This document shows positions 19,250 to 63,789 of a stretch of 64,000 nucleotides of DNA, one piece after another (position 1 is the stretch's first letter; each line of letters begins with the position of its first letter). Position numbers and translations under genes: made by a program. Location of the stretch: assembly GCA_964017235.1 (NCBI GenBank), contig OZ024935.1:34265596-34329595 (forward strand), written 5' to 3'. The notes beneath the pieces were generated by a model. That model was not told the DNA's origin. It did not search any database and saw only the letters and a program-made list of their open reading frames with translations. Source of the DNA: Sabellastarte sp. h YS-2021 (Eukaryota; Annelida; Polychaeta; Sabellida; Sabellidae).

Positions 19250-19358
19250 AGAGTCATAATTTCGTTGAGTGTTGGGTCTGAAGCCTGATTTTGCTCTGGT
19301 GAAGGCCCTGGCGCTAAGGGAAGCTGCAACAGGATGAAGACCTACAAAGAAAAACTAA

Positions 19359-20558
19359 TTATATGGTCCAATCAATATGTAACATATCCAGGTACACAGG
19401 AACCCACTGAGGTTCAGCTATGTGTCTCTGCAATTGTACAATATTATCATGAATAGTATCCCACCTTGATAGCAAATCTGCTACAGTATTTTTGATCCCA
19501 GGGAGGTGGACTACTGTTATTTCTATGTCAAACACAGAAGCTAACATCTGTATGTTTCTTGCATAAGCAGCAAGCACTGGATCACGTGTTTTACCTGCTT
19601 TCATGACAGATACCACAGCTTGATTATCACATTCAAATCTGACCCTCTTACCAGCCCAATTTTGGGCCCAAATTCTCAGGGCTAGGTACAAGTTTAACAT
19701 TTCCAGCTGGACTATACCAAGGTTATCCATGCCTAGAGGTATTTGCAATTTGTATACATAGTTACCCCACCTACCTCCCAGGCCCTGGAGCGAGGCATTG
19801 ACCTGCACTGTACCTTGAACGAATTGATGGTTATACAGACATACACCATTAAAATGAGGTAAGAACTTCTGAAACCATAGCAAGTCTCTATAAAATTCGG
19901 CATTGAGTTCAACGTGGTCACTGTTCGCCTCCCTGAGGTTCTGAAGCATTCTGTTAAGGAAAGGTCTGGAGCTTTTTACACACATCGTGATATGCATAAG
20001 GGATCCGAGTAGTGACTGGAGGTCTCGCTTTCAAACCTGAGTTTTACTTTCCCAAGAGAAACACAGTTCAATGATTTTTCTTAGTTTATCTGGAGGGACA
20101 GAAATGGTACCATCTATTGTGTTAATCTGCACACCAAGACAGGTCACTGTGGTAATTGGAAGGACCAGTTTTTTCGTGCTAGTGGTGAGACCTAATTTTT
20201 CCAACAATTCACACAAGTATTTGAAGCTATTGTGAGCAGTACTGGGCAGACCAAACCCAATCAGATCATCTATATAATTTATGATGTCATAATTCTGTTT
20301 ACTCATGATGAATCTTACTGCATCGCTGGTTCTCTGAAAAATTTTACTACCATGTTTAAATCCAAAAGGCAGGCAAGAATCAAAGTAAAAACCATCCCAA
20401 TTTAGACCCAATTTATCATAATCTGAAGGATCCATTTTTATATGCCTGAAGGCACGACTGATATCTACCTTATATAGCAGATAGCCACGACCTAGCTTGA
20501 CCACTTGAGCAGTTATATCATCAATAGAAGGAAAAGTCAACATGAATTTGGTACCCAT
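19359..20558 (-). pseudogene. Ngaro-1 reverse transcriptase / RNase H
   Basis: The frame opens with 'LLYKVDISRAFRHIKMDPSD' and 'CLPFGFKHGSKIFQRTSDAV', then the catalytic 'NYIDDLIGFG'. A single in-frame TGA after 'SWESKTQV' at about 20031 splits it from the RNase H part, which carries 'FECDNQAVVSVMKAG' and 'VHLPGIKNTVADLLSRW'. The active-site IDD is kept. RT copies genomic RNA and RNase H removes it. Confidence 0.9.
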
Positions 20559-21813
20559 GTATTTGTCCGAATCAACAAAATCATTGATTGAATTACCCTT
20601 TGGCCAACTAAGGTCAACTATGACACGTCTATTTTCAGAGTCGGGTTTTTACTCTAGCAATAAATGGGCTACAATGCAAAGTTTTAAAAGGTTTTTCACT
20701 AAAAGGGCCAAATATGGCTTTAAAACATTTTTCTTCCTGTAAATAACTGTCTACATGCGATGGAAACAAAGTAGCCGACTTATGATTGGACAAATCACAA
20801 CTTAAGTTTGCTTCCAGTTTAACATCCAGGGGAAATCCAAATTTGATATATTGGACAAGTTGCCAGTCCCAATAATCTGTCAAATGTGCTTCCCAGGCTG
20901 TAGGATTCAACTGGTTATCCACTAACAACCTTGTTTGTTGAAAATTGTAAAACCCCGAACTTTTGACAACATTATAAGCTTCAATGGGTGAATGAACTTT
21001 CCCATTTTCTTCCCAATTTTTGTTTCCCAATAATGGACTAAGGGGTATGAACCCAAATGCAAACTTATTTTGGTGTTTCCAGGTTTGAAAAACGGGGACA
21101 GTAGCAGCCTGTTGTAACTTCACTTGTTTTGCTAGTTTACAGTGCCATAAAGGGACTATGTGAGGGAAACTAGTACATTCCTGATCTACGACTTCCCACG
21201 GCATGTCACAGCTGAGATTCGGTTCAGTGCGACTAGCAACATAAGTAGTGTTTCCCTCGTCAACTCTCTTCAATTCTGTAAATTCCACATCTGCATTTGG
21301 TTTTATTTGTACATTTTTGGAACATCGATTCACCGTTTGTTTTACAAGACAATTGTTGGGTTTACTACTGTTGTTACAACTGTCAACCTGACACAACTCA
21401 CCTTTGCTGTTGTTTCGCGACTGTATGACAGTATTTTGTGTATTCAATACACCAGAAAGGTCCTTTTTGTATTTTCCATGCGCTTGTTTTGCCACATTGC
21501 TAACCACATTAACCACGGCCTTGTCACATGTGTTAATTGGTGAATATGTTTCATTATCAAGCTTGTCAAAGCGATTATTGACAGGCACATTGTAACACAG
21601 ATCTTGAACAATATGACACTTTTGTTTAACTGGTTTCTGCATATTGGTGACCTGACCATTTGTTTCACGTTGTACACATGTGTTTTTACCAGAATAGTGC
21701 ACATTTTTGCGAAAATTTGTATTCGCTTCATCAGTATTTACAGTTTTAAATTTGCTATTATATATAATCCTAGTAACAAATGATTTTCTAATTTTTTGAC
21801 AATTTTTTGGCAC
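20559..21813 (-). pseudogene. Ngaro-1 pol N-terminal region
   Basis: The open frame at 20635-21813 is Asn/Lys/Val-rich at first and then has 'WQLVQYIKFGFPLDVK', 'SHVDSYLQEEKCFKAIFGPF' and 'LHCSPFIARVKT', a region that precedes RT in Ngaro-type pol and is echoed in Ngaro-2 ('EAYLPEELDHKAILGPFKEH'). A frameshift near 20635 separates it from the RT frame. Confidence 0.75.
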
Positions 21814-44385: not shown

Positions 44386-45490
44386 ATGGCAACTTCTGAC
44401 ATGAACAACATTCTTAAAAAAATTAAGGAGGAGGCTAAAATAGCCCATCCTGGCATCCTGCCAAAAGGGAAATCCATGGACAGCCTAGTTGGTCACATAG
44501 TCATTAACTTGTCTGACACTGTTTTAACCAAGGCCCAGGTTTCAGCCCTGGAAAAGGGGCTAACATTCTGTCCCACACCAGGACCCCTAATAAGTCCCAG
44601 ATTTGGATGGACTTTAAGGAGTTCCACAGGAGACTATGCTTAAAGTTTCATTTCGATAATGACAATCAAATGTTTGATCATTTATCAGACCAGGAAATTG
44701 AACTGATCAATTTTATGGCGGATAACCTAGAACAAGAAACCGAGCCATACAAACATATACACAATAAGTTTGTTGACAAAAGCACCTGGAAACTCAACAG
44801 AGTCAACCAGTCTCCAGAAATATTCCAAAGATCTTTTAAATTGGCCCTACTTAACAGTAAAACTAAAACTGCCCATAAACCAAATTTGTCAAAAGAACAA
44901 ATGAGTGGTCTCAAAGAATTAAGTGATAACCCAGAGATTATCATTAAAAAGGTGGACAAAGGCTCGGCAGTGGTAGTAATGAATACCATTGATTATCTTA
45001 GAGAAGGCTACAGACAGCTAGGGGATGGTAAATACTACACTAAGTTACCAAATGACCCACTGAGAAAATAGCCCAAGGTGTTAGGGATATGCTCACCAAA
45101 ATAAAAAAAGGTCATATATCAGAAAAAAACTTTGACCACCTAGCCCCAGACAACTGTACTGAAGCAAGACTCTATATGTTAACAAAAATACATAAAAAGG
45201 TGTACCCAGTAGACCAATTTGCAGTTCTGTTGACCACCCAACTAGCATGATCAGCAAACTTGTTGATAAACATATCAAAGAACATGTCCACCATACTAAG
45301 TCTTACATTAGAGACACCCAGGACTTTATTAAAAAGATTAAAGAACTGGATCCTTTTCCTGAAGGGGCAATTCTTGGCACTTTTAGATGTATCCTCATTA
45401 TACACAAATATTCCTAATAATGAAGGCATCTTAACAGTAGCTGAAAAATTGAGGCGTGATCCTAGTAAAACTCCTATTGCTAATTTCATA
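44386..45490 (+). pseudogene. Penelope N-terminal region and RT start
   Basis: The ATG at 44386 opens 'MATSDMNNILKKIKEEAKIA'. A frame change at about 44610 leads to 'DFKEFHRRLCLKFHF' and 'LSKEQMSGLKELSDNPEIII' followed by 'KKVDKGSAVVVMNTIDYLRE', the conserved Penelope entry block. After 45071, 'EARLYMLTKIHKKVYPV' and 'LKGQFLALLDVSSLYTNIPN' (the palm Asp block) follow in other frames. Confidence 0.85.
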
Positions 45491-46080
45491 CTTGATTGCT
45501 AAAGTTAGTACTGCATAGTATGAATTTTACATTCAATAGAGATCAGTATCTACAAACAGGTGGTACAGCAATGGGCATATCATTAGCCCCTAACTATGCC
45601 AATCTGTTCATGGACTGATTTGAAACAAAGGCTCTAGATGGTTACCCATTAAAACCACTTGCATGGAAAAGATTCATTGATGATATTTTCATGGTATGGA
45701 CTCATGGAGAAGATTCCTTGAACATATCATTGAATACTTAAACTCCCTTTATGAAACTATTAAATTCACACACAAAATGAGCTACAATCAAATTGACTTC
45801 CTAGACACCACTGTAAACTTTGATCACAATAGAGGACTTATCATCACTTTATAAAATAAGCCCAAAGATACCCATTTGTATCTTGAGCACAGTTCAGCAC
45901 ATCCTAACAGATGTCAGACCAAAGGATTGTATGGGCAGTATCTCAGACCTAGGAGAATCTGTACTGACTTTGAGTTCAAGGCCAAAAGCTAACTGGTTAT
46001 TACCTCAAAAGTGGTTATCTAAGTTCCTCTCTGAAAAAACATTACCACAGAGCAAGGAAATTCAATCAAGATGAGCTGTT
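45491..46080 (+). pseudogene. Penelope RT catalytic part
   Basis: 'QYLQTGGTAMGISLAPNYAN' then a stop inside 'LFMDxFETKAL' and the catalytic 'KRFIDDIFMVWTHGED'. Later 'IDFLDTTVNFDHNRGL' and 'HSSAHPNRCQTKGLYGQ' are readable, in shifting frames. The IDD residues are intact. Confidence 0.85.
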
Positions 46081-46089
46081 AGAAAGAGT

Positions 46090-46590
46090 CCCAAAAACCT
46101 CAATTGATATGCCTGTTATGGTCACACAGTTCAACCCTAGGAATCCCAAAATAGGTTCCCTTATTAAGGATAATTGGAATATAATGCAAAACACTGAAGA
46201 ATTGACTCAAATACTCAAATACAAACCATCAATTGGCTACAGGAGACTACTAAATCTCAAAGACTTGCTGAGCAGTAGCAGCATTACATACCCACCTACA
46301 CCTAAACCATTGGTTCCAACAAACCAATATATCCCAATCCCAAAATCAGGAAACTTGAACAAAATACGTGTTTCCACACTAAGAAAACATTTAAATGTCA
46401 ATCACTCCCCCAAAACAAAAGATCACTTGTGAGCTATCAAATGTAATTTACATTATTAATTGCAACCTATGTAGCCTCCAATACACAGGAGAAACCAAGA
46501 GGCCTATTAGGAATAAAATGTGTGAACACTACAGCAGTGTCTCTAGGCACTTCTCACAGAAAAATCATTCTGTAAGAAATATGTAATTCA
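46090..46590 (+). pseudogene. Penelope connector and GIY-YIG endonuclease
   Basis: 46109-46432 has 'MPVMVTQFNPRNP' and 'KYKPSIGYRRLLNLKDLL', the usual connector. In the next frame 'CELSNVIYIINCNLCSLQYT' and 'GETKRPIRNKMCEHYSS' give the GIY-YIG core in its Penelope form (CxxC-type Cys, Tyr, Gly-Glu-Thr, Arg, Glu-His). The C-terminal part is cut short at 46586. Confidence 0.88.
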
Positions 46591-50085: not shown

Positions 50086-50280
50086 AGATGTAAATATGGT
50101 GACAAAGGTCACCTTATCGACATCCTCGACCTGTGTGTATTTCTTCAGACAGGTATCCACTTTGGTAAGCAGACAGTGTGGACGTGTGTAAGCTTTATTT
50201 TGTTTTCTATGGTCATAAATTGTGAAAAGTTAATTAATTAAATAAATGCTATAGTTTGTAAGAGGACTAGTTTTAAAGGA
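50086..50280. other. Short spacer
   Basis: Non-coding sequence between the L1-like fragment and the satellite; no feature seen. Confidence 0.5.
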
Positions 50281-50858
50281 GATATAAGGCAAAAACAGAA
50301 AATCGGCTATTTTATTACCCCAGTTCGACCCATAAGAGGGGGTAAACCTGACTGGCTATATACGCTCCCCATATATGGAATCTATGGTAAAGCTGTAAAA
50401 GCAATAATAAAGGAGATATCAGGCAAAAAGAAAAAAATCTGCTATTTTATAAGCCCAGTTTGACCCATAAGGTGAAATCTGACTGACTATGTAGTCTCTC
50501 TGTACATTCTTTCCTGTGCTGTCTCAATACATTCTAAACCTGTAAAAGCAACAATAAAGGAGATATAAGGCAAAAGGACCAAATCTGCTATTTTTATGAC
50601 CCCAGTTTGACCCATAAGGGGGTCAAGAGGTAAATCGGACCGGCTAAATAGACTCTCCACATATGGTTACCCAATACTTCTTAATACATTCTAAAGCTGT
50701 AAAAACAATAATCAGGGAGATATAAGGCAAAAACACACAATTGGCTATTTTATAACCCCAGTTTGACCCATAGGGGAGAGGGGGGGGGGGTCAGGGGGTA
50801 AATATGACTGGCTATCTAAACTCTTTACAAATGGTTTCCCTGTACCTCTTAATATATT
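50281..50858. repeat. About 120-160 bp satellite, left of gypsy-1
   Basis: 'gagatataaggcaaaa' or a close variant occurs near 50279, 50413, 50560 and 50717. Each unit also has 'ccagtttgacccataa' and 'cattctaaagctgtaaaa'. The array is cut at 'cttaatatatt' by gypsy-1 and resumes at 63231. Confidence 0.88.
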
Positions 50859-51059
50859 ATTGTAAAATAACAGACTCACCAGTAGTTATCTGTAGTGATG
50901 TAGTTGGATTTCCTTTTCAGGTCCTTTCTCTTTGGATATGCACAGATAACTGAATGTGCTTAGTTCATTTCCTGTTCTTCACTTCCAGTGGGGAGATACT
51001 AAAACTCAAACGGTAGGCGAACGGACTTCCATTCGAAACTACCCGGCGGCTTCACTTCA
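50859..51059 (-). repeat. Gypsy-1 3' LTR
   Basis: It matches 63032-63230 closely except for a cluster of differences at about 50900-50935. The element-sense LTR begins TGAAGTGAAG and ends in TTTTACAAT. It includes an inverted pair 'agttatctgt/acagataact' (50887 and 50943). Confidence 0.93.
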
Positions 51060-51072
51060 TTCCTCCCGGTTT
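51060..51072 (-). promoter_or_regulatory. Gypsy-1 polypurine tract
   Basis: On the minus strand 'aaaccgggaggaa' directly precedes the LTR start TGAAG, as expected for the plus-strand primer. Confidence 0.85.
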
Positions 51073-51159
51073 TGTTTAGAACAGGTCCATCAGTCATCTG
51101 AGGTGGGTGGTTGCCAGACCAGACCAGGGTGTTTAACACACTTGCAACGGTCTTTGACA

Positions 51160-51475
51160 TATAGAACAGTGTTGCCTATCCTGTTGTTTCTTTCCAGAGA
51201 ACTTACAACAGTTCTTGACATGTAGAACAATGTTTATAATCCTTCTGGTTTCTTTTGAGTCTCAACAGTTCAGGAACCTGTAGAACAATGTTGAGAATTC
51301 ATCTGTTTTTAGACGATGCTTAACAGTTTAGTATGATGAACAATGTTGCTGTATTCCCTCCAACTGTCTGGTAACCGGGACAATGTTGTGAGATATCCAT
51401 AACAGTCCTTTACATAGAACAATGTTGATGAATTTTGCAACAGTTCATTTCACCATGTAGAACAATGTTAATACT
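51160..51475 (-). repeat. Degenerate tandem repeats in the 3' UTR of the TatD gene
   Basis: On the plus strand 'tagaacaatgttg' or a variant starts at 51162, 51223, 51281, 51335, 51377, 51415 and 51458 (spacing 38-61 bp). Most units also have 'aacagttc' upstream. It lies between the TatD stop (51510) and the polypurine tract. Confidence 0.85.
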
Positions 51476-51509
51476 CCCTCTGTCTTACTTATTCATACTC
51501 ACAATACCC

Positions 51510-52429
51510 TCAAACCTTTAGACCGTAGAGATCTGCAGCGTTCTTTCTGGTAGTGGTCAGCACTGCCCTGATAGTTGTGTCTTTCAGTTGAGCTACACGT
51601 CGAGCTACTTCCTCAAGACCATAAGGGGTATTGTAGGCACAGTTTCCATGAACTGGGGGTGTCAAGTATGGAGAGTCTGTTTCTAACAGGATCTGATCTG
51701 CTCCACAACAGCTTCAAGTTCTGGATTTCGGTCCTTTCGCAAAAGCAAACCAGTGACTCCAATCCTTATTCTAGGAAACCTTGCCAACCAGTCGCGAAGC
51801 GTGGACATACCCCCGTTAAAGCAGTGGAAATGAAGGTTTATATCCTCTCTATGGAATGCAGGTATCTCCTCCTCAAAGACCTTGAGACAGGTTCCATAAG
51901 CATCCATACGGTTTCCCTTGTCCCTGCAGTGAATCACAATGGCTTTGTGGTGGTACAATTCTTCCCTAACAAACATCTGTAGGAACTTCCTACAAAGCAG
52001 GGTTTGTTGAGTTTTAAATTTTCCAAAGTGGCCACTGAAGTCAAATCCAATCTCACCAAGGCCAACACAACGTGGATCCTTGATGACGCTTGTTCTAACC
52101 CTCTCGAAATCCTCGTCTGTGGCAGTATGGGCGAGTTTGGGGTGCAAACCGTGCGTGTGGAAAATTCTGGAATCTCTCTTCCACATCTGTCTCAGTTCCT
52201 TGCTTGGCGCTTCGTGACAAAAGTTTGCAACAACGGCTTCAAGATACACTGGAGTTGCCGGCATTGGACCTCTGTCTAGGATAGTATCAATATCGCGACA
52301 ATGACTGATCCACCTCAGTTTATCCAAGTGCATATGAGAGTCGATGAAGCTCACTCTGTCCCTGCTTTTCACCTTCAGGAAACTGGTCCTTCTTTGCACC
52401 CATTCTGCCTCTTCCGTAAGGGGTACCAA
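51510..52429 (-). pseudogene. TatD-family metal-dependent nuclease domain inside gypsy-1
   Basis: The frame 52429-51683 carries the TatD signatures: His-x-His in 'FIDSHMHLDKL' (residues 32 and 34 from the TTG at 52429), Glu in 'GLGEIGFDF' (126), His in 'VIHCRDKG' (167) and His in 'LHFHCFNGG' (202). It stops at 51683, but the C-terminus continues in another frame to 51510 with 'LLETDSPYLTP', holding the last metal-binding Asp. Family members are TIM-barrel 3'-5' exonucleases/endonucleases using two metal ions. A stop lies just upstream of 52429 and no ATG starts this frame. The SR frame and the C-terminal tail share a frame, so two opposite indels near 52425 and 51690 broke a single gene. The closest animal layout I recall is TATDN2. 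Confidence 0.9.
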
Positions 52430-54107
52430 TATCCTTCACAACCTTGGGTTTAGGCGGACTCTCTAGTATTGAAGAGCTAGCACTCCTCACATCCTCAGAA
52501 GGTGAACCCAGTAAAACAGCTTCCTCCGAGGGAGCAAGACTACTTGCTAAATCCCCAGATTCACACTGGTTACCCTGATCCACCTCCATTGGCTGCTCTT
52601 CCACTGGTACTTCCTTGGTTCCTTCAACTTCTGGTTGAGCAACCTGGACTGGTTGAACAACCTGGGCATCTGTTGGAACATCCTGAACTGGTGTATCCAC
52701 AGTTGAAATAGACTGGACATCCTGGTTTTCAGCCTCGAGATTTGTTGTTTCGAAAGACTGCCTAGGTAATGTTACCTTCTCCTCCCCAATGCAATTGAGA
52801 ACAGTGGAAAAAACTCTCCAGTTCGTAAGGACAGCAACGCAATTGGGGGGGTCCACAATTGGTTTGGACGTCAGTTGATTCCCAGTCAGCCACAGGTGAA
52901 AAGCTTTCACAAACTTGGCATCTTCCTCAGGAATAGTAAACCTGGTGTCCACAGGAAACCACTTATTTTTTACAACAAGCTGCAGTAACTCATCATGGTT
53001 GGACAAACCAAGTGCTGCTTCCAGAGACATCAAAGATTGGTTATAACGGACCATTCTTTCTTCATTGGGCATCTCCTTCCAAGTGGCGAAGGCAATTGAT
53101 AGATGCTTCCCAACGACATGTTTTTTAATACTGGGCGATGGTTGGCCACAGTTGGTCATGTAACAAGCATGCCTCTTCTGCTTTTTCTTAGGAACAATCA
53201 CTTCCAACGTTTCAGAGGACGATCTCTTTAAAGTGTTGGCATTGTTGTTATACACATCTTTAATAGTAACTTCCCTAACCAGTTTAGTAGATGAAATTAC
53301 CTTCTTTGGTGGTTCCTTGTCGCTTTTTTCTTTAGGTATGGTGACCTTTGGTTTTAGTTCTTTAGGTATGGTGACCTTTGGTTTTAGTTCTTTAGGTATG
53401 GTGACCTTTGGTTTGGTACTCTCTACAACCTCCTTTGGCTGGGTGACGACTGTTGCACGAGGAGCAGATACTACAGGAACAGACGCGGATGAGGCAGGCG
53501 CCGCTGAGACACCACAAGCTGCTGCCATCATCTCCCTAACTTTCCTACTGCTAGTTTCCAACAACAGTCCTTGGCTGTAGACTTCCATGCTTGATGCTGT
53601 AGTTTCAACAATGCGCTTAATGGTGTTGAAATCCACAAAGCTATACAATTCTTTCAGCATCCTTATCACCTGCTCGTTGAGTGAACGAGTTGAAGATGCA
53701 GGTGAATGTTCATGTACCCGTGCTCTCGAAGACTGAGTAGACTCTGAACGAGAGTAAACTGTACGTCTAGAACGAGAGACAGAACGCCTTCTTCGTCTTG
53801 GTGGTAGATCAAATGTAACCCTACGCTCTGATCTGGTTTGTTCAGTAGGGCCTTCATCAGTCCTGGTTACAACAGATCTTGGTCTAGATCTGTATGAAGT
53901 AGACGATTGGTTAGATCTTGAACTAGATCTACCCTGGTCTGGTTGACTTGTGACAGTTGAAGATCTCTGATCAGATCTTTCGCGGTTATGAGATCCTGAT
54001 CTTCGACTTGTGGAAGTAGATCTGGGGCTAGATCTATCCGTGTCAGTATGTGAACTTGATCTCAGGTTTGAGTGATTTTTTGAAGTGACTTCTTTCTTGT
54101 CTGCCAT
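52320..54107 (-). CDS. SR-rich zinc-finger protein N-terminal to the TatD domain
   Basis: The ATG at 54107 opens a 595-codon frame. Residues 1-145 are Arg/Ser-rich, like splicing-factor SR domains; 145-200 look helical ('LNEQVIRMLKELYSFVDF'); 232-260 hold three copies of a 10-residue KPKVTIPKEL-type repeat; 307-312 is a KKKQKR nuclear signal; C315, C320, H330 and H335 form a C-x4-C-x9-H-x4-H finger; 480-570 is acidic and Val/Pro/Gln-rich. The last 37 codons overlap the TatD frame and are probably out-of-frame tail after an indel. It starts 149 bp after the pol stop, on the same strand. Function is unknown; RNA or DNA binding is inference from composition. Confidence 0.82.
   Translation of the reverse strand: MADKKEVTSKNHSNLRSSSHTDTDRSSPRSTSTSRRSGSHNRERSDQRSSTVTSQPDQGRSSSRSNQSSTSYRSRPRSVVTRTDEGPTEQTRSERRVTFDLPPRRRRRSVSRSRRTVYSRSESTQSSRARVHEHSPASSTRSLNEQVIRMLKELYSFVDFNTIKRIVETTASSMEVYSQGLLLETSSRKVREMMAAACGVSAAPASSASVPVVSAPRATVVTQPKEVVESTKPKVTIPKELKPKVTIPKELKPKVTIPKEKSDKEPPKKVISSTKLVREVTIKDVYNNNANTLKRSSSETLEVIVPKKKQKRHACYMTNCGQPSPSIKKHVVGKHLSIAFATWKEMPNEERMVRYNQSLMSLEAALGLSNHDELLQLVVKNKWFPVDTRFTIPEEDAKFVKAFHLWLTGNQLTSKPIVDPPNCVAVLTNWRVFSTVLNCIGEEKVTLPRQSFETTNLEAENQDVQSISTVDTPVQDVPTDAQVVQPVQVAQPEVEGTKEVPVEEQPMEVDQGNQCESGDLASSLAPSEEAVLLGSPSEDVRSASSSILESPPKPKVVKDIGTPYGRGRMGAKKDQFPEGEKQGQSELHRLSYALG
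53331..53415 (-). repeat. 30 bp tandem repeat, nearly 3 copies
   Basis: 'gtgacctttggttttagttc' followed by 'tttaggtatg' repeats at 53341, 53371 and partly 53401. It encodes the KPKVTIPKEL repeats of the SR-rich protein. Confidence 0.95.
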
Positions 54108-54114
54108 TTTAATT

Positions 54115-54136
54115 CCTGTAGAAAGGAAAAATCAAG
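54115..54136 (-). promoter_or_regulatory. Candidate 3' splice site before the SR-TatD ATG
   Basis: On the minus strand 'tgatttttcctttctacag' ends at 54116, 8 nt before the ATG at 54107. A pyrimidine-rich tract followed by CAG is a strong acceptor by eye. It would let the accessory gene be expressed from a spliced subgenomic RNA. Possible donors 'ACAGGTATTTC' lie in the leader (about 62870). Splicing is inferred only. Confidence 0.55.
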
Positions 54137-54255
54137 ATAAGCACTGTGGAATCCATACATTTCAATGGGTAATAGCAGTTAGTAGTCATACCAACACCAA
54201 ACCCTCATGCACTTAACTAGGAAATTCCACCAAATCTTATCTAAGTCTTAACTAC

Positions 54256-56625
54256 TTAAATATAGTCCTGCAAATGACGCGGTCTCCTCCTTTCACGACC
54301 ACTTCTGCTGGGCTGTAATTCAGGTAGCTGATCTCCAGAATCAAGATGTTGTTCAATCTCGAGCGTAGACTCTGGCGAAACTGGGTCATCTGGAAACAAT
54401 TGTACTTTCTCCTGACAGTATCCTGGCAGACTGACATCTGTATTATCTGGCTCATTTTCGAATAGCCAATCCAAACAGAAATCATCTTCATTTTCAGGAT
54501 CCTCTTGGTCAAGGTCGTTCAAAATTTTACTTTGTTTTCTGCGAAGCCACAAAGGAATGGCACAATCTTCACAAGGCTTTAACCTATCATGATGTAGGAC
54601 AAATGACTTCCTCTTGTCAGCTACCTCAAAAATAATAGGTGAAATAACCTTGAAGATGACATATGGGCCTTTCCATACCGGCTGTAACTTAGGACTTATG
54701 CCAATTTTTCTAGCTGAATCAAGGACATACACGAGATCACCAATCTCATACGTAGTCACTTTCAACTTGAGGTCATAGTCCCTTTTCTGTCTTTCTTGAC
54801 TGGACTGCAAGGACTCCCTTGCAAGGGTATGGACTTGACGAAGAATTTGCTGTAGCTTTGTGACATATTCCGCAGAAGTTGTTTCTTCTTGACCGATAGA
54901 GCCGAACATCAAATCAACTGGCAACATGACTTCTCTGCCAAGCATCATCATGTTCGGGGTAAATCCAGTGTGTCTATTGACGGTTGAGCGAATAGCACCT
55001 GCTAGTTGCTGTAGGTGTTCATCCCAGGACTTCTGATTGCTTTTCAGGAAACACCGAATTAACTGCAGTAGGGTGCGGTTATAACGCTCTACCTGACCAT
55101 TGGAGCATGGTCTATAGGGTGTAGTCCTTGTTTTGGTAATCTGGAGCAAATCACAGACAGTTGCGAACAGTTTACCATCAAAATTCTTTCCTTGGTCAGT
55201 GTGAATCTCCACTGGGCATCCTAAACGTGAGATGAATCCATCAACCATACATCGGGCCGTTTCTTCTGCATTCTGATGTGGTAATGGAAAACATTCAAGC
55301 CACTTAGTGAACTGATCCACAATCATCAAGACATATTGGTTTCCCTTGGTGCTTGGAGTGAATGGACCTAGAATATCCACATGCACACGTTCTAATGGAG
55401 ATCCTATGTGGTACTGTCCAAGTCCTGCTTTGGCTTTGGTTTTGGCTTTTTTACTCCTGTTGCACACCTGACAGGATTTCACGAAAAGTTCAACATCCCT
55501 TGACATCTTATACCAAATAAAAGACTTTCGGATACGCAAGAGCGTCTTTGCGATACCCATGTGTCCAATTAATGGTATATCATGATTAAGGGATAAAACT
55601 TCTTGTTTTAGGCTTTCTGGAACTACTAATAATTGTTTTTCCCCAAGGACATTCTTCCAGGAGTACCATAATAAGTTGTTTTGGTAACTTAAACGACTTC
55701 TATTGAGGTAGAAATACTTAACTGCTGGGCTGCATAAGGACAACTCCCTTTGACTAGGGGTTATGTCAGTTTGCAGCCAAACAATTAGTTTTTTCAAACA
55801 AGGATCATTCTGCTGAAGTTTTGACAACTCTTCTTCTGTATATGAGAGAATCCACTGGACATCTGGCTCATCTGGCGAGACAGAAGCTGTTCTAACGGCT
55901 AGAGGAACGGCATCATCGACATCAGATTCAAACCTAGACCACTGCTGATGGGCCCTGGTACAGAATTTACAACCTTGACAAGGTAAATCTGCCAGGTCAA
56001 CACCAGCTTGGTAACAGTTGCAGAAACTTGTTTCATCTGGGATTCTGGACAATCCATCAGCGTTTCCATGTCTGTTTCCAGGTCGATGTTGGACGATCAT
56101 GTCGAATTGACTCAGTTCTTCTAACCATCTGGCTAGTTGACCCTCTATGTACTTGAAACGAAGAAGCCAAGTTAGGCTATTGTGGTCTGTCCTCAGGTAG
56201 AATTTTCGGCCTAAAAGATAGTGACGGAACTGTCTTGTGAATCTGATTACAGCTAGGAGCTCTCTTCTGGTCACACAATACTTGCGTTGTTCTGGGGTCA
56301 GAACATAACTTCCGTAGCTAATCACTTTTTCATCACCATCTTGCAGTTGTGATAGCACAGCACCTATTGCTGTTCCTGAAGCATCCGTATCCAGAATGAA
56401 AACGTCTGTTGCATTCGGATAAGCCAAAATGGGCGCATTGACCAACTTCTCCTTGACGGCGTCAAATGCTTCTTGGTGATTTTCCTGCCATTCAAAAGTT
56501 GCTTTACTTCCCGTCAGTTTGTAAAGTATGGAAGTAAGACCTGCGTAATCCTGGATATGATCACGATGGTAATTCACAAATCCTAGGAATTTCTCTACAT
56601 CTTTCACAGACTGTGGATTGGCCAT
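54256..56625 (-). CDS. Gypsy-1 pol: RNase H and integrase (intact 789 codons)
   Basis: The frame starts in the RT-RNase H connection ('DVEKFLGFVNYHRDHIQDYA'). RNase H residues follow: Asp in 'FILDTDASGTAIGAVLSQL' (about 79-81), Glu in 'TRRELLAVIRF' and Asp in 'YLRTDHNSLTWLL'. The integrase zinc domain (GHMGIAKTLLRIR ... CQVCNRSKK) is at about 355-395; the catalytic core has Asp in 'VHVDILGPF', Asp in 'EIHTDQGKNFDG' and Glu in 'SNGQVERYNRTLL'. A GPY/F-type module ('VWKGPYVIFKVISP') and an acidic tail ending 'RRRPRHLQDYI' follow. Length and motifs are normal for Ty3/gypsy. No chromodomain is seen. It is separated from the RT frame by one frameshift near 56620. Confidence 0.95.
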   Translation of the reverse strand: MANPQSVKDVEKFLGFVNYHRDHIQDYAGLTSILYKLTGSKATFEWQENHQEAFDAVKEKLVNAPILAYPNATDVFILDTDASGTAIGAVLSQLQDGDEKVISYGSYVLTPEQRKYCVTRRELLAVIRFTRQFRHYLLGRKFYLRTDHNSLTWLLRFKYIEGQLARWLEELSQFDMIVQHRPGNRHGNADGLSRIPDETSFCNCYQAGVDLADLPCQGCKFCTRAHQQWSRFESDVDDAVPLAVRTASVSPDEPDVQWILSYTEEELSKLQQNDPCLKKLIVWLQTDITPSQRELSLCSPAVKYFYLNRSRLSYQNNLLWYSWKNVLGEKQLLVVPESLKQEVLSLNHDIPLIGHMGIAKTLLRIRKSFIWYKMSRDVELFVKSCQVCNRSKKAKTKAKAGLGQYHIGSPLERVHVDILGPFTPSTKGNQYVLMIVDQFTKWLECFPLPHQNAEETARCMVDGFISRLGCPVEIHTDQGKNFDGKLFATVCDLLQITKTRTTPYRPCSNGQVERYNRTLLQLIRCFLKSNQKSWDEHLQQLAGAIRSTVNRHTGFTPNMMMLGREVMLPVDLMFGSIGQEETTSAEYVTKLQQILRQVHTLARESLQSSQERQKRDYDLKLKVTTYEIGDLVYVLDSARKIGISPKLQPVWKGPYVIFKVISPIIFEVADKRKSFVLHHDRLKPCEDCAIPLWLRRKQSKILNDLDQEDPENEDDFCLDWLFENEPDNTDVSLPGYCQEKVQLFPDDPVSPESTLEIEQHLDSGDQLPELQPSRSGRERRRPRHLQDYI

Positions 56626-57130
56626 TTCTTACTTTGGTAATGTTGTCTGGATTCACAGCAACACCTTTGAAACTAACCACATGTCCCAAAAATGTAGTTT
56701 CAGTATGGAACAGGCTACACTTTTTGGGCTTAAGTTTCAGATTGTGCTGACGAAACCTTTGAAATGTCAACTCAAGGTTAGCAACATGATCTGTGAAGTC
56801 TTTGCCTAAGACAATCACATCGTCAATGTATGCCAATGTTTTGGTCCATGTTAACCCTCTTAGGACAAATTGAATCACTCTTTGGAATGTGGCGGGAGCA
56901 TTACAAAGCCCAAACGCCATCCGTTTGTGTTCAAATAGTCCATACTTGGTAATAAAGGCTGTTTTGTGCTGATCTTTTTCATCAATTTATATTTGCCAAT
57001 AACCACTCGCCATATCAAGTGTGGAAAAGTATCTATTACCAGACAGCTGATCCAGACATTGTGATATGGATGGTAATGGAAATAAGTCTTTGACTGTTTT
57101 GGCATTCAAAGAACGGTAATCCACACATTA
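56561..57130 (-). pseudogene. Gypsy-1 reverse transcriptase, central part
   Basis: After two stop codons near 57127 ('DGSV' followed by stops), RT blocks continue: 'CVDYRSLNAKTVKDLFPLPS', 'FSTLDMASGYWQI' with a stop after it, 'RMAFGLCNAPATFQRVIQF' and the catalytic 'LAYIDDVIVLG', then 'KPKKCSLFHTETTFLGHVVS'. The YIDD residues are kept. At least three stops and two frame changes fall in this part. Confidence 0.92.
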
Positions 57131-58273
57131 TCAGACAGAGCCATCTCTCTTCCTCACAAGAACTGGTGCAGAGGCCCAGTCTGAGGAAGACTCTGAGATC
57201 ACCCCGATATCCAACATCTGCTTCAGGTTCTCCTCTTCTTCGCCTTCAAAACCTATTGGTGTTCGACGCATAGGATGTTTAACTGGTCGTTCTGTACCAG
57301 TGTCTATTGTATGTTTAATTTCTTTGAAACATCCTATATCATGACTCCCCTTGGAAAATATATCCTGATACTTCAGTAGTAAAGATCTCAAGATGGTTGC
57401 TTCCTCTTCATTCAAGAACTTCTTGGAACGCTGGAACAATCCTTCAAGATGATCTGGAAGACTAGTATGAAGTTCAAGACTGGTAGAAGGTTTCTCAAGA
57501 TTGCTTGAATGTTTTTCAAGACTGCTAGTGTTGATCTTTTTGGAATTCTCAGTCAAAACAACGTCACATTCCATTGCATATCCTAACACATGACCAACAT
57601 GAATTAGAATTGGAACGTCTGTGTCATTGACTAATTGAATTGGGACCATTTCCGCTGCCTGAACAATAGTGTTAGGTAGCAAAACACCTTTGTTTTTACC
57701 GGATGGTGAAATAACTATTTCACCAGACAAAGTTTTTGCTAACCGAGCACTAGTTCTTAAAACACTGCTAGGTGGTAGGAACAATTTTTCATGGGCAATA
57801 ACTGGGACACAAGAGTATTGATTCCCCTCGCTAGTTTTGAATTGATTCAACCTCAGTGAATACCTATTCAACATGAGAGTACCTTTATCCAAGTTCAAAA
57901 CAGCTTTGAAATGACAAAGAAAATCTAAACCAATAATTAAAGGTTCAGCTATATTAGCGACATAGAATTTCCATGTGAATGATTGCGACTCACTGAAGGA
58001 GACTGTTACTCCCTCGAACAGTTTTGCATCAATTTTCACATCTTGAATAATTCCTTCCAATTTAAGCATTCCCTTTAAATCAGGTTTGTTTTCAATCTGT
58101 TCATACAGTTTACTACTCATCAAGGAAATCTGAGCGCCGGTATCTAGTAGTGCTTTGGTTTTAACACCTTGAACAGTGCAATCTACTACAGCGCTAAGGT
58201 TATCCTTGTTACTTTCTCGTGTTTTTCTACACCAAACTCTCTTACATGTCTTGTGATTCACCCAATTATTCAT
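57131..58273 (-). CDS. Gypsy-1 protease and RT N-terminus
   Basis: 'VKTKALLDTGAQISLMSSKL' contains the retropepsin DTGA active site, and 'PLIIGLDFLCHFKAVLNL' the usual ILGxD-like block. A linker follows with Ser/Leu repeats ('SSLEKHSSNLEKPSTSLELH'), then the RT entry 'IKHTIDTGTERPVKHPMRR' and 'MLDIGVISESSSDWASAPVL'. It ends in 'RKRDGSV' at a stop. It lies in a different frame from gag, so a gag-pol frameshift is likely in active relatives. Confidence 0.92.
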   Translation of the reverse strand: MNNWVNHKTCKRVWCRKTRESNKDNLSAVVDCTVQGVKTKALLDTGAQISLMSSKLYEQIENKPDLKGMLKLEGIIQDVKIDAKLFEGVTVSFSESQSFTWKFYVANIAEPLIIGLDFLCHFKAVLNLDKGTLMLNRYSLRLNQFKTSEGNQYSCVPVIAHEKLFLPPSSVLRTSARLAKTLSGEIVISPSGKNKGVLLPNTIVQAAEMVPIQLVNDTDVPILIHVGHVLGYAMECDVVLTENSKKINTSSLEKHSSNLEKPSTSLELHTSLPDHLEGLFQRSKKFLNEEEATILRSLLLKYQDIFSKGSHDIGCFKEIKHTIDTGTERPVKHPMRRTPIGFEGEEEENLKQMLDIGVISESSSDWASAPVLVRKRDGSV

Positions 58274-58309
58274 GTTGAGGGTCGGGGCAACGGGTGAATT
58301 ACCCCTCCC

Positions 58310-59163
58310 TGTTAGTTTAAAGACTTTACAGAGTCAGAAAAGGTTACGTTGGACTTCTCACCCATGGAGCTAGGTCGCATGGTGGAGTCAGAACTACCTT
58401 TAAAACCCTGTGTAGTCCTAGGTGGTGAAGGTGGACTATGGTAGCGTTAGTTATCCCTTCTTGGGCTGGTCCTCCAGTTTGAATCATCACTCCGCTGTGG
58501 ACTTCTCCTGTAGTCTCTGTTTTGTGATGGATGGTACTGTCCAGAACAGGGACTGCCATAGATATTCCTCTGATATCCTTGACTGGATGAAGGAAACCTT
58601 TCAGGGGTACCCGGTGGTGTGTACCTATCACGTCTGGGACCATTATGCTGATAACCAGGTAAGTTCCATGTTGGGTCATAACCCTGATGATCTCTCCAGT
58701 TGGGTTGATCGCTCCTGGTTGATGACCATTGTTTTCTGTCGTAACCATCATATCGCCTCCTGGGACAATTTTGTGCAAAATGTCCTGGTTCACCACAGTT
58801 ATAGCATCTCAGTACATCCTGTCTGTTCTTATTTTCTTTCAACACTTTGTGTAGACCCGAGATGACCTTGTGAAACTTCTTGTGGTGACGACCATCTCTT
58901 CTAGATGTATGGCCCCGGGCTTGTAATGTCTTAGCCACAGTTTCCTCTGATGTGGTAGAAGTATCAGAATCAGTTGAGGGACTTGACGAGTCAGACTCAA
59001 CATATTTGACACTCCTCGCAGAAGCCTTCTTCCCAAGGATAGCTTTGCGTAGTTGCATAGCATCCTGAACAAATTTATAAGCATCTTCAAGGGTGGTGGG
59101 ATGTTTACCAGCAGCTGCAAGCACTGCTGCTTTGTCACGGCAGCCCTTCATGAAAGCATCCAC
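58310..59163 (-). pseudogene. Gypsy-1 gag C-terminal part with CCHC knuckle
   Basis: 'MDAFMKGCRDKAAVLAAAGK' and 'TLEDAYKFVQDAMQLRKAIL' are the capsid end. 'CYNCGEPGHFAQNC' is a perfect C-x2-C-x4-H-x4-C zinc knuckle. An Arg/Tyr/Asp-rich tail follows; a single TAA near 58444 lies in it and the frame runs on to about 58310. It is in frame with the preceding gag part. Confidence 0.9.
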
Positions 59164-59187
59164 GAAAAATGGACTGCATGCCTCTTG

Positions 59188-60729
59188 CTTCTACTCATCT
59201 GGGAATAGGGAGACTATCATTCCTTGCATTCTGGCCAAGTACTTTTCAAGATTTTCATCCTCACGCTGTTCAGTTTGTAAAAGTTCCCATCTCAAGGCAG
59301 CTGGGGATTCCGTCTTCCCAAAGTGATCCTGGAATCTCTTTTTCAGCCAATCAAAGTCCGATTCTTTACTGTTTGGCAGGATTCCATAATACTCTGCTGC
59401 TCCTTTCTTCAGGGACATGGCAAAGTTATGGATCTTCTCAGACTCGGTCCAGGCTAAGGTCTTAGCCACAAGCTCAAACTGAGAAATGTATCCATTCCAA
59501 TGTTCACCTTCAAAGGACAGCTTTGGTACGTGAATCTTGGTCTTCGTCTTGTCTTTATGGGTCACGGTTTTCTTCTGAACTTCATCTTCAGAGCTGTCAG
59601 ATGAGACATGGACATTGTCATTCACCTGACTGACTACACTGACACGTGGTGTCTTGTTGTTGTAAACCCTGTTTGGGCTTTTTTCACGAATAGCAGCTGA
59701 TACACGCTGAATACACTCATCCTGATCTTCAATCCTTGATGTTGAACATCTACTAGTTGTCCTAAGATAGCTAGGTACAGGAGTATACAACGGCTGAGAC
59801 ATCCTGACCTGCTTCTGAGGAACCTTCGCAATAGTTTGTTCTTCTGTAGACCCTGGGTAATTAAACTCTGAAACTGGCCTCAAGTCCAATCCTGTCCACT
59901 GAAGACCTGGTAAATTGGACGGAAGCTCATTTTCCAAATTAAATGTATCTTGCATGGTTCTGAGCTGGCGGTTCACTTTCTCCAATGTAGGCTTATGCTT
60001 GGCTTCAAATATCTTGCTCTGGACATTGACATTTCGCTCGAAAGCTTTTTCAATGTCATCAAGACAATTCTCATCAGCCACACCTTCCAGTTGTTACTTT
60101 TGCTGGACTAAAATCTGTTCATGCTTCTGTAATGCAGCTTCGTTCTCGGTCACAAGCTTGGATAACTCTGTAAAGGAATTTTCCAAGTCCTTCTGTAAAG
60201 CTTGAAAAGCTAGATCCTGCTCCACATCAGTTCGATGTTTACTGATCGAAGGATTGTGGTCACAGGGAGCATGCTTAAGGTTCTGTACTTCCTCTTTGAC
60301 AACCTGCACCTGTTGAGCTAGACCATCTAGATCTTGATGCAGCAAAGAGACTTCCTGTTGATGTTGGTTTTCAGCAATCTCAAGTTGTTGGAGAGAGGTT
60401 ATCGCTTCCTCTTGGGATCTCTGAGTTTCTTTGACCGACTCCAGTTCCCGGTCCAACATCACTTGATGTTGTGTCACCCTGGACTTCAAGGAAGAAAACT
60501 CAGTTTTCTGCTGGTCGTACTCTTCAACTTGTCGATCCAAGCGAGAATCAAGTCTTGAAAACCTAGACTTTGTTTCTTGCATCTTGGACTGTAAATGCTG
60601 ACTAAGGTTCGAGACATCCCTATAGCAGTTGAACATCACTTCCTGCTGAGAAGACGTCAAACCGGACACATCACTCTTCAACATTGCGGTGTCACTTTCC
60701 ACTCTGTTTTTGATGTTTCTCCTCGACAT
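59188..60729 (-). pseudogene. Gypsy-1 gag middle: coiled coil and capsid
   Basis: 60094-60729 is a long predicted coiled coil rich in Gln, Glu and Lys ('SRLDSRLDRQVEEYDQQKTE', 'ENEAALQKHEQILVQQK'). One in-frame TAA at 60094 separates it from 59191-60081, which carries the capsid-like region 'VPKLSFEGEHWNGYISQFEL' and 'FGKTESPAALRWELLQTEQR' followed by 'ENLEKYLARMQGMIVSLF'. Another in-frame TAG at about 59188 precedes the C-terminal part. Confidence 0.88.
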
Positions 60730-61462
60730 CAGTCACTCTCTGATCCAAGCCATCTACTCTGGACTTAAGCTCAAGTTGAGCCGTATGGGTTGAATGAACT
60801 GAATGGTTCAATTCTTCCACTGTGCGGAACAACTTTGTCACTTTGTTGCTGGTATCAACCTGGGTAGATTCCAATTTCTTCACAGACTTCTCTGTTTTTG
60901 ATGTGTTTCCCTTGATTGCGATCAGAACTGACCAAATATCATCAAGTCCTGGCTTTCCAGTAAGTATTGGAATAGAGTCCGAAGTCTCGGGTTCAAGTCC
61001 TGCAGTTCCCTGACTGGGAAAAACCTGATAGGATGAGCCCGACAACTCTACTTTTGGTGACTGCAACTTCTGCTGATCAGTTGATGTTCCCGACAAATGC
61101 AATGATCCTTTGTCAGGGAAAGCATACTGGTCATCCGAATCTTCATCGTCCATCTCCTCCACCTCACGGGAATCTTCCGCGCCAACCTGAACTACAAGGT
61201 GTTCCTGACTGGAGCAAACCTTGTTATCAGGCGACACATTTTTGTCACTGAATATGATGAAACCTGAGTGTTGGAGTTTCTTGATCACTGAATTGCTGAC
61301 AACTTTTGACTTCTGAAGGTCATGCAAGGTCAGCGTACCACCATTTTCTTCCCTCAGGTTCAATATCCTGTCTGCCTTTGCTTCACCAATGCTTTTTATT
61401 GACAATAAATCAGCCTTGGTTATATCTGCAATGTGGACTGGTTTTTTTCCACCGGTAGCCAT
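60692..61462 (-). CDS. Gypsy-1 gag N-terminus with helix-hairpin-helix domain
   Basis: The likely start is the ATG at 61462 ('MATGGKKPVHIADITKADLL'); the open frame continues further upstream but without retroelement-like sequence. Residues 10-70 ('LLSIKSIGEAKADRILNLRE', 'LTLHDLQKSKVVSNSVIKKL') match the tandem helix-hairpin-helix fold of ComEA/DNA-uptake type, which binds DNA non-specifically. A Ser/Asp-rich linker and a coiled-coil start follow. A frameshift near 60720 leads into the next gag segment. Confidence 0.82.
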   Translation of the reverse strand: MATGGKKPVHIADITKADLLSIKSIGEAKADRILNLREENGGTLTLHDLQKSKVVSNSVIKKLQHSGFIIFSDKNVSPDNKVCSSQEHLVVQVGAEDSREVEEMDDEDSDDQYAFPDKGSLHLSGTSTDQQKLQSPKVELSGSSYQVFPSQGTAGLEPETSDSIPILTGKPGLDDIWSVLIAIKGNTSKTEKSVKKLESTQVDTSNKVTKLFRTVEELNHSVHSTHTAQLELKSRVDGLDQRVTDVEEKHQKQSGK

Positions 61463-63013
61463 TTCCAGTTTTTTTAAAGCGAATTTACTCAATTCAACCA
61501 ACAAAAAACCTGACAAACAACAAACCGACAAACACTGTAAATTCAATAACCAACCAGCAAAACAATGCCAAGTCAATTAATGAAATTGTACACAAATAAC
61601 ACACAAATCCGATAATCTAACTTGCAAGGCGGAGCAAAGTTAAAACGAATTAAATCAAACCCAATCTGCACGACAATGCAAAGATATAGGTCAAAGTACA
61701 ATAAATAACTTGCAAGACAAAGCAAAAGTTATTTAGCAAAAATCACAAAAGGTACAGATGAAATGAAGAAAATTTGAAATACTGTTCAAAAATTTAAACT
61801 TTTAAAGAAAATACACTACTTTAATTTTTTTTTTTCCTAAACTAAAAAAAAAAACAACAACATCAAATTCACAGTTCTACCTAATTCAGATTGAATGTAA
61901 TTTTGTTATTGAACCTCAATAAATTTTAAACAAGGTTAAATAAATTTTTACGCAATAAAAGATTAGATTATTGTAATGCAATAAAAAAGGTTTTTTTTCC
62001 CTATTGAAAAATCTTCGCAATAAAAATTTGACTACAAATTTTAACTACAACATATAATCATGCAACTAAATGAAAAATAATGGGTCTTAACTACGGTTAG
62101 TAAGGGCAATTTCTTTCAAAGTTCAATATAAAAATAATTTAAAATAATATTCAGAATACTATTCAAAATTTAATTCAAATCACTAGAAAATTACTACAAA
62201 ATACTACCAACAGAAAATTAAATTTACTTGCAAATGTGCTACTAATTTACTATAAAGACAAATATTTTACTACAAGTACTGTCAAAAATACTATATTTAC
62301 TTCAAATTTCCACAAAAGAACCACTATAAATACACTAAAAAAAATGTACTACAAACACACAGCTCTAGAAATACTATTTTGCTTTGAAAAAATACAGTTG
62401 TGTTGAACAATACAGGTATTTTATTTATCAAATAACGGTGCCGACGACCGACCAATTATTTGCAAACAAAAAGTACCCAATCGATATGAGTTGTAATAAA
62501 CAACTGACAACCAACTCGAGCGATGAACAAATATGACAAGAAAAGCAATAAAGAGCAGTGGAAAAACGAAATTTATACTGCCACACACACACAAATATGA
62601 GTACCGAAACCGTACACTGTTTTACAGCAAATATATTTGTGACAATAATTTAAAACAAAATACCTACAAATATGAAGTAAAATAGTGTATATTTTATAGA
62701 AGTTTACCGGAAATCACGCTAAGATCGCCGATTAACACACTACAAAAACGAAAATTCACGCTAAGAATTGCCGATAATTCACGCTAAGAATTGCCGATAG
62801 GTGAATTTCAGAACACTAAATTACAGCATATTATAGACAAACAAAGTAAAAAATAACAATGAATCGAAGAAATACCTGTTTTATTCACCACAAAACACCA
62901 AGCAAATTCAAACAAAGTTCAAATTCACATGGTGAACGAAAATTAAAGATTCATCACAAATAAACAGAAATACCTACAAAACCAATACCAGAATGTAGTG
63001 GGTGATAAAATCA
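61463..63013 (-). other. Gypsy-1 leader (5' UTR), AT-rich
   Basis: A long leader of about 1.55 kb with no coding similarity, rich in 'actacaaa' phrases. At 62713-62800 'ttcacgctaagaattgccga' is repeated twice with a third diverged copy. Possible splice donors (complement of 'aaatacct') occur near 62660, 62870 and 62970. Confidence 0.7.
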
Positions 63014-63029
63014 CACACTTCTGGTACCA
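63014..63029 (-). promoter_or_regulatory. Gypsy-1 primer-binding site (tRNA-Leu-like)
   Basis: On the minus strand TGGTACCAGAAGTGTG starts 2 nt inside the 5' LTR. It begins with the TGG that pairs with a tRNA CCA end. From memory it matches the 3' end of a tRNA-Leu of the type ending CACTTCTGGTACCA. Confidence 0.75.
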
Positions 63030-63031
63030 GT

Positions 63032-63230
63032 ATTGTAAAATACCAGACTCACCAGTAGTTATCTGTAGTGATGCTGTAGGATTTCTTTTAGGTGTTGTTC
63101 CTTTGGATATGCACAGATAACTGAATGTGCTTAGCTCATTTCCTGTTCTTCACTTCCAGTGGGGAGATACTAAAACTCAAACGGTAGGCGAACGGACTTC
63201 CATTCAAAACTACCCGGCGGCTTCACTTCA
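63032..63230 (-). repeat. Gypsy-1 5' LTR
   Basis: Partner of 50859-51059. The flank on the right is ATATT, equal to the flank left of the other LTR. Confidence 0.93.
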
Positions 63231-63500
63231 ATATTCTAAAGCTGTAAAAGAATTCATAAATGAGATACGAGGCAAAAACACAAAATAGGCTATTTTATGA
63301 CCCCAGTTTGACCCATAAAGGGGTGTCAGGGGGTAAATCTTCACATATAGTTTCACAATACCTTTTAGTACATTCTAAAGCTGTAAAAGCAATAATAAAA
63401 AGGGGATATAAGGCAAAATGTCAAAAGTGGGGAAGAAAATTTGACTTGCTTTCTAGACTCTCCACATATGGTTTCCTACTACCTCCAAATACATTTTATG
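63231..63500. repeat. Satellite right of gypsy-1
   Basis: It continues the array of 50281-50858: 'attctaaagctgtaaaag', 'gagatacgaggcaaaaac', 'ccccagtttgacccataa', and a second unit at 63370-63420. Confidence 0.88.
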
Positions 63501-63789
63501 GCTCTAAATGCAATACTTAAGAAGATAATAGGGGGTTCGCATGAATTTTAAGCTTTCTGGTTGGTACCCCCTCTCTTAAAATCTAACCAGCTTGCGTTTT
63601 TGATAATATAAACATGTGTATGAAATTACAAGCCTCTGCGGTCAGTAGATTTTGCTGAGCGGCGATGACGGGCGGGTGTATCCAAAAAACTATTTTTTGA
63701 TCATGTGACCTTGATAAAGGTTAAAGGTAAAACTTAAGCATGTGAAAAATATTTCCCACGCCTGAAACTGAAGCAAAAACAAATAAGCG
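63501..63789. other. Non-coding spacer
   Basis: No feature recognised. Confidence 0.45.

What the first reader, a model, noticed from the sequence alone, without database searches (positions are those of the whole stretch)
50859..63230. A Ty3/gypsy retrotransposon carrying an SR-rich/TatD nuclease gene in the accessory-ORF slot
Seen: between the pol stop (54256) and the polypurine tract (51060-51072), on the same strand, lie an SR-rich zinc-finger frame and a TatD domain with its metal ligands (H-x-H, E, H, H and D). LTRs, primer site, PPT and target duplication bracket the whole unit. Known: gypsy elements can carry env or other accessory ORFs there; TatD proteins are metal nucleases. I do not recall a gypsy lineage with TatD. 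Inference: a host TATDN2-like gene was captured and may act on RNA-DNA hybrids or cDNA ends, or on host defence nucleic acids.
Basis: partly seen in the sequence, partly recalled or inferred. Interest (0 to 1): 0.92.

Follow-up and report, generated by a model that had tools for sequence, protein, structure and literature searches.

The report
Retrotransposon carrying a TatD nuclease gene

Summary
A Ty3/gypsy-type LTR element (50858-63230, minus strand) sits in a tandem-repeat array with a 4-bp duplication (ATAT); joined flanks restore an array unit. Between pol and the polypurine tract lies one gene: SR-rich tail, zinc-finger/helical domain, TatD nuclease. In this decayed copy it is split over three frames; relatives encode it as one ORF (P0013, cluster of 70 sequences; P0021, 33). 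One predicted protein runs past TatD into the element's 3' UTR at 94%; another joins the element's gag N-terminus to a P0021-type TatD. So the block probably belongs to the element. New here: the best-scoring 3' splice site (1st of 951 AGs) lies 8 nt before the gene's ATG, and the best 5' splice sites (tied top two of 804 GTs) lie in the LTRs, suggesting an env-like spliced mRNA. Capture of host TATDN2 is neither shown nor excluded: the nuclease groups with other ZnF-TatD proteins (TATDN2 row recalled). The own genome could not be searched, so no second full copy was seen. Library searches found no earlier report. Function is inferred.

The parts
50858..63230 (-). whole LTR retrotransposon (decayed copy), inserted in a tandem-repeat array, TSD ATAT
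63031..63230 (-). 5' LTR (TGAAGTGAAG...CAATA)
   Evidence: 94% identical to 50858-51059
63051..63052 (-). predicted 5' splice site CTACTG|GTGAGTCT in the 5' LTR
   Evidence: tied best of 804 GTs with its twin in the 3' LTR (50879); matrix from recalled consensus
63014..63029 (-). primer binding site TGGTACCAGAAGTGTG (tRNA-Leu-like by recall)
58447..61576 (-). gag: N-terminal part with helix-hairpin-helix motif, middle part, Retrotrans_gag, CCHC knuckle; in-frame stops at 60094 and 59191 and a frame change near 60.7 kb
57131..58333 (-). protease (gag-asp_proteas) and, by position, the start of RT
54256..56986 (-). RT (RVT_1), RNase H, integrase H2C2, rve, integrase C-terminal domain; frame change near 56.6 kb
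54116..54140 (-). predicted 3' splice site (pyrimidine tract, CAG), 8 nt before the ATG
   Evidence: best of 951 AGs
52320..54107 (-). SR-rich tail, basic region, zinc-finger/helical domain (about 52722-53189), linker; ATG at 54107
51683..52435 (-). TatD domain, N-terminal part (H-x-H, E, H, H ligands)
   Evidence: PF01026 E 2.2e-21
51513..51698 (-). TatD domain, C-terminal part in another frame (LETDSP ligand); stop at 51510-51512
51060..51512 (-). 3' UTR with seven degenerate units AACATTGTTC..AACTGTTG
51060..51073 (-). polypurine tract AAAACCGGGAGGAA
50858..51059 (-). 3' LTR

Best explanation
It is a Ty3/gypsy-type LTR retrotransposon lineage whose third gene, in the env position, encodes a nuclease: an SR-rich basic tail, a zinc-finger/helical domain and a metal-dependent TatD domain. 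Shown: the arrangement in this copy, insertion as one unit, near-identical predicted proteins on other contigs, retained metal ligands in full-length relatives, and continuity with the 3' UTR and with gag in two other predicted proteins. Inferred: the protein is made from a spliced subgenomic RNA (donor in the 5' LTR at 63052, acceptor at 54116), as gypsy env is. Inferred with less certainty: in the nucleus the SR tail and zinc finger bring the nuclease to the element's RNA-cDNA or integration intermediates, where it trims RNA or 3' ends and so helps complete the new copy. My estimates: gene of the element 0.85; spliced expression 0.6; acting on the element's own nucleic acids 0.4.
For: Element anatomy and clean empty site. 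Homologues: 12, 9 and 17 proteins in three searches, 33 distinct, with clusters of 70 (P0013), 33 (P0021), 60 (P0023) and 115 (P0024) member sequences. P0013-P0018 (89-94% to the SR ORF) have six different longest-contig lengths. P0018 matches 51672-51139 at 94%, past TatD into the 3' UTR; P0012 joins gag (61405-60983, 83%) to TatD, and its TatD is 91% identical to P0021, so a second lineage is tied to this gag. All five ligand motifs are present in 13 of 31 relatives and the ligands are invariant in the 11 relatives I put in A3. Between P0013 and P0021 the TatD domain is 69% identical, the zinc-finger domain 58%, the linker 39%. Splice signals: 1st of 951 AGs, tied top two of 804 GTs; the acceptor score was reached in 0 of 300 simulated 200-nt stretches. 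The P0013 model has a TatD barrel, best PDB TMt 0.89. Gypsy env comes from a spliced mRNA (PMC4276936, passages). TATDN2 is reported as an RNA 3' exo- and endonuclease that resolves R-loops (PMC12709183, introduction).
Against: No second full copy was seen: the own genome did not complete (15 calls), and five viral-contig scans and one genome-contig scan gave no relative. The protein table lists one contig for each of these rows, so cluster members may include alleles or other assemblies as well as copies; for that reason I put 'gene of the element' at 0.85, not 0.9. P0012 and P0018 are gene predictions from unnamed contigs, and P0018 is frame-shifted at the end of TatD. P0006 and P0027 have a changed ligand. 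Gypsy linkage of P0023, P0024, P0025, P0030 and P0031 is not shown; they may be host genes or lie in other elements. The acceptor score is reached somewhere in 28 of 300 simulated 12.4-kb elements, the matrices come from recalled frequencies, and there is no RNA evidence. The copy is decayed (LTR K2P 0.063). No substrate is known.
Confidence: 0.6

Rival explanations
1. A counter-defence or trans-acting effector: the nuclease degrades host nucleic acids that silence the element, for example small guide RNAs in the germ line, and does not act on the element's own intermediates.
For: Vertebrate tatdn2 is expressed in germ cells, and human TATDN2 has RNA 3' exonuclease activity (PMC12709183, abstract and introduction). 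NCBIfam lists a TatD nuclease of the bacterial anti-phage Qat system, and all six relatives scanned match that model, below its cut-off. A separate spliced mRNA would make the protein available in trans.
Against: No substrate, localisation or expression data. The QatD match may be only shared TatD ancestry; the general TatD model scores higher in all six.
Confidence: 0.25
2. The SR-ZnF-TatD gene is a passenger: a host gene taken up once by this family and amplified with it, of no use to the element.
For: The window copy is broken, and many of the relatives are truncated or frame-shifted predictions.
Against: Two diverged lineages (P0013 and P0021, TatD 69% identical) both keep long open frames and the ligands; the best-scoring splice acceptor is set right before the ATG; no retrogene footprint. 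Selection itself was not measured, because only proteins of the relatives were held.
Confidence: 0.15
3. Chance nesting: a TatD-bearing mobile element or multi-copy host gene inserted into an ordinary gypsy copy at this locus.
For: Only one full locus was seen, and the window is crowded with other retroelement frames.
Against: P0018 shares TatD and the 3' UTR down to 51139, and P0012 shares gag and TatD; no flanking duplication beyond chance and no poly-A at the block.
Confidence: 0.08

Closest known systems
Errantivirus/gypsy env (third ORF of Ty3/gypsy elements)
   Same: Position between pol and the 3' LTR, same strand, and a predicted spliced subgenomic mRNA (PMC4276936 passages).
   Different: Encodes a nuclease with SR tail and zinc finger; no envelope domain among the Pfam matches of the SR ORF, the TatD frame or the ten relatives scanned.
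TATDN2 (animal TatD protein with disordered N-terminal region)
   Same: Disordered N-terminal region followed by a C-terminal TatD (PMC12709183, passage; model).
   Different: The element protein has a conserved zinc-finger/helical domain, and its TatD groups apart from a recalled TATDN2 domain. In BLAST the recalled domain is about as close to two other TatD rows (98-102 bits) as to the ZnF-TatD proteins (best 113 bits).
TatD/YcfH nucleases
   Same: TatD barrel and ligands; best solved match S. aureus 6l25, TMt 0.89.
   Different: 22% identity to that chain in the structural alignment; six relatives scanned fall below the cut-offs of all five NCBIfam TatD models listed.
Retand elements of plants (additional ORFs, long pol-3'LTR region)
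   Same: Extra ORFs and tandem repeats between pol and the 3' LTR (PMC11963269, abstract).
   Different: Their ORFs are antisense and most clusters encode a TRP28 domain of unknown function (same abstract).

Membership tests
Ty3/gypsy (Metaviridae) LTR retrotransposon | LTR pair, PBS, PPT, target-site duplication | tested here: met
Ty3/gypsy (Metaviridae) LTR retrotransposon | Order protease-RT-RNase H-integrase | tested here: met
   coordinates; BEL/Pao elements share this order (recall)
Ty3/gypsy (Metaviridae) LTR retrotransposon | RT placed inside a Metaviridae clade by phylogeny | not tested
   no reference RT set was fetched; clade unknown
Errantivirus (gypsy with env) | Envelope glycoprotein in ORF3 | tested here: not met
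   no envelope domain in Pfam scans of the third gene and ten relatives
Errantivirus (gypsy with env) | ORF3 from a spliced mRNA | tested here: inconclusive
   strong predicted sites, no RNA
TatD nuclease family (PF01026) | Profile match above curated cut-off | tested here: met
   76.9 bits in the window, 121.4 in P0013, 140 in P0021, cut-off 27
TatD nuclease family (PF01026) | Metal ligands H-x-H, E, H, H, D | tested here: met
   invariant in the 11 chosen rows of A3; all five motifs in 13 of 31 relatives; in the window spread over two frames
TatD nuclease family (PF01026) | Nuclease activity | not testable with these tools
   needs protein
TATDN2 | TatD closer to TATDN2 than to other TatD groups | tested here: inconclusive
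   groups apart, but the TATDN2 row was recalled, only two other outgroup rows were used, and long branches were flagged
Host retrogene insertion | Poly-A tail and own target duplication | tested here: not met
   an old, eroded footprint would not show

The most novel reading that the evidence does not exclude
A long-lived lineage of animal LTR retrotransposons replaced or never had env and instead carries a spliced, zinc-finger-guided TatD nuclease. The ZnF-TatD proteins predicted in large clusters (33 to 115 members) are largely genes of such elements, and the nuclease is a required replication or anti-silencing factor.
Probability: 0.35. Interest if true: 0.85.

Novelty: new variant of a known kind. 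Interest (0 to 1): 0.72.

Why it matters
Extra genes in LTR retrotransposons are mostly envelopes or proteins of unknown role (my recall). An element that spreads a dedicated metal nuclease, with two diverged nuclease lineages tied to one gag type, is a testable case of a mobile element carrying its own nucleic-acid processing enzyme. It also suggests that multi-copy TATDN2-like genes in genome annotations may be transposon genes, and it points to a conserved zinc-finger/helical domain with no Pfam match above cut-off.

Tried and rejected

Limits of the protein searches: one search scored only the 7998 candidates sharing most words; 421 and 1819 candidates were scored. Alignment A3 used 11 and the tree 15 of the 31 relatives P0001-P0031, chosen as long rows; in the tree P0032 and P0033 were cut, and the P0033 row lacks the first ligand stretch.

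Literature: ten library searches. Those whose full list was shown and that bear on an element-borne TatD: TatD+retrotransposon+gypsy 1 paper, TATDN2+transposable element 6, TatD+LTR retrotransposon 2, TatD+retrotransposon 14; none reports it by title and start of abstract. Searches showed only 20, 20 and 10 of 2580, 570 and 1113 papers. That is absence in this open library, not in all print. Papers seen: PMC12709183 (abstract, introduction, passages), PMC4276936 (passages), PMC6962438 (one passage), PMC11963269 and PMC12440569 (abstracts); all others as listing only.
Full report
What is there. The stretch 50858-63230 is an LTR retrotransposon on the minus strand. Its LTRs are 202 and 200 bp and 94% identical. 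It carries gag with a CCHC knuckle, protease, RT, RNase H and integrase by Pfam, a PBS and a PPT. It lies within a degenerate tandem-repeat array (not listed by Tandem Repeats Finder). Joining the flanks and dropping one ATAT gives CTTAATATATTCTAAAGCTG, one base different from a neighbouring unit. The insertion is therefore one event that includes the TatD block.

The third gene. From the ATG at 54107 to the stop at 51510-51512 runs a gene with an SR-rich tail, a basic region, a zinc-finger/helical domain, a linker and a TatD domain. In this copy it is split over three frames. P0013 (709 aa, lacking the SR tail; 93% to the SR ORF and 98-100% to the TatD parts) and P0021 (821 aa, with SR tail) show it in one frame. 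The clusters they stand for hold 70 and 33 member sequences; the more distant P0023 and P0024 hold 60 and 115. The table gives one contig for each row, so members may include alleles or other assemblies. P0013-P0018 (89-94% to the SR ORF) have six different longest-contig lengths, which suggests several copies. Thirteen of 31 relatives have all five ligand motifs; the other 18 are mostly fragments or frame-shifted, and P0006 and P0027 have a changed ligand.

Linkage to the element. P0018 is a gene prediction whose end matches 51672-51139 at 94% over 178 codons; about 370 nt of this lie beyond the TatD stop, in the 3' UTR. P0012 joins a gag N-terminus (83% to 61405-60983) to a TatD stretch (68% to 52270-51977) that is 91% identical to P0021. 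Whether this join is predicted splicing or a deletion is unknown, but it ties a second TatD lineage to the same kind of gag. No A run of 8 or more and no flanking repeat beyond chance surround the block. Full second copies could not be examined: the own-genome search did not complete in 15 tries, and five scans of the viral collection and one of the prokaryote collection held no relative.

Expression. The SR frame opens after the pol stop, so it needs its own message. Scoring every AG on the coding strand, the best of 951 is TTTTTCCTTTCTACAG|GAATTAAAATGG at 54116, with 8 nt between the AG and the ATG. In the whole window, both strands, 2 of 8088 AGs score as high, this one included. By a plain pyrimidine count it ties for first with one other of 435 [CT]AG sites. 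The best GTs, 2 of 804 tied, are the twin sites CTACTG|GTGAGTCT in the LTRs. Simulated sequence reaches the acceptor score somewhere in 12.4 kb in 28 of 300 cases, but in a given 200-nt stretch in 0 of 300; position, not score alone, is the evidence. Gypsy env is made from such a spliced RNA (PMC4276936, passages).

Structure and family. AlphaFold2 gives, in P0013, a mostly confident TatD domain (about 405-709) and zinc-finger/helical domain (about 152-290), with disorder between. Predicted alone, the helical part stays confident but the zinc-finger part does not (pLDDT 51-57). TatD matches solved TatD barrels (best 6l25, TMt 0.89; human TATDN3 0.81-0.82, TATDN1 0.70-0.75). The zinc-finger/helical domain has no Pfam hit above cut-off and no Foldseek hit with E up to 0.001; the zinc finger is my reading of a C..C..H..H pattern. 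One cysteine, two histidines and the PP and W residues persist as far as P0030, 17% identical. In a tree of 18 rows the ZnF-TatD proteins form one clade (97/96) against two other TatD rows (one named as planctomycete, one unnamed) and a recalled TATDN2. Long branches were flagged, and in BLAST the recalled domain is about equally close to both sides, so origin from TATDN2 is neither shown nor excluded.

Mechanism. Most likely the element makes a nuclear nuclease from a spliced RNA to process RNA-cDNA or integration intermediates. The reported activity of TATDN2 (RNA 3' exonuclease and endonuclease, R-loops; PMC12709183, introduction) makes RNA-DNA hybrids or RNA ends plausible substrates. Counter-defence is the main rival. 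No substrate is known, and the wider family's linkage to gypsy is unproven.

Novelty. Accessory ORFs in gypsy elements are known (PMC4276936 passages; PMC11963269 abstract). A TatD nuclease there was not found among the papers listed for TatD with retrotransposon, gypsy, LTR retrotransposon or transposable element (wider searches showed only part of their lists). I file it as a new variant of a known kind.

Noticed in passing
window 51060-51512 (-): Seven degenerate units AACATTGTTC..AACTGTTG lie between TatD and the PPT; on the coding strand CATTGTT occurs 5 times in 453 nt against 3 times in the other 11,920 nt of the element. By recall this is a SOX-type site, so the array may be regulatory; the units are copies of each other, so the counts are not independent.
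   Followed up: partly
window 60692-61576 (-): The gag N-terminus carries a helix-hairpin-helix motif (HHH_3, E 4.1e-5, below Pfam's cut-off), also seen weakly in P0012 (E 0.0021); unusual for a Gag, by recall.
   Followed up: no
window 53328-53417: A 30-nt tandem repeat in the SR ORF (KPKVTIPKEL) has three copies here against two, two, two, one and two in P0013-P0017.
   Followed up: partly
window 50250-50857 and 63231-63545: A degenerate tandem array, spacings 121-157 bp, that served as the target site.
   Followed up: partly
window 6644-39100 and 44517-46432: Other retroelement frames: several RT frames, and a phage-integrase SAM-like domain at 18701-19354 beside RT at 20031-20648, as in tyrosine-recombinase (DIRS-like) elements by recall; frames near 45-46 kb without a Pfam hit.
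   Followed up: no
PMC6962438 (giant squid genome): The Hox-cluster figure legend lists TATDN2 among non-Hox genes together with ZMYM1 and POGK (passage); these may be element-derived genes.
   Followed up: no
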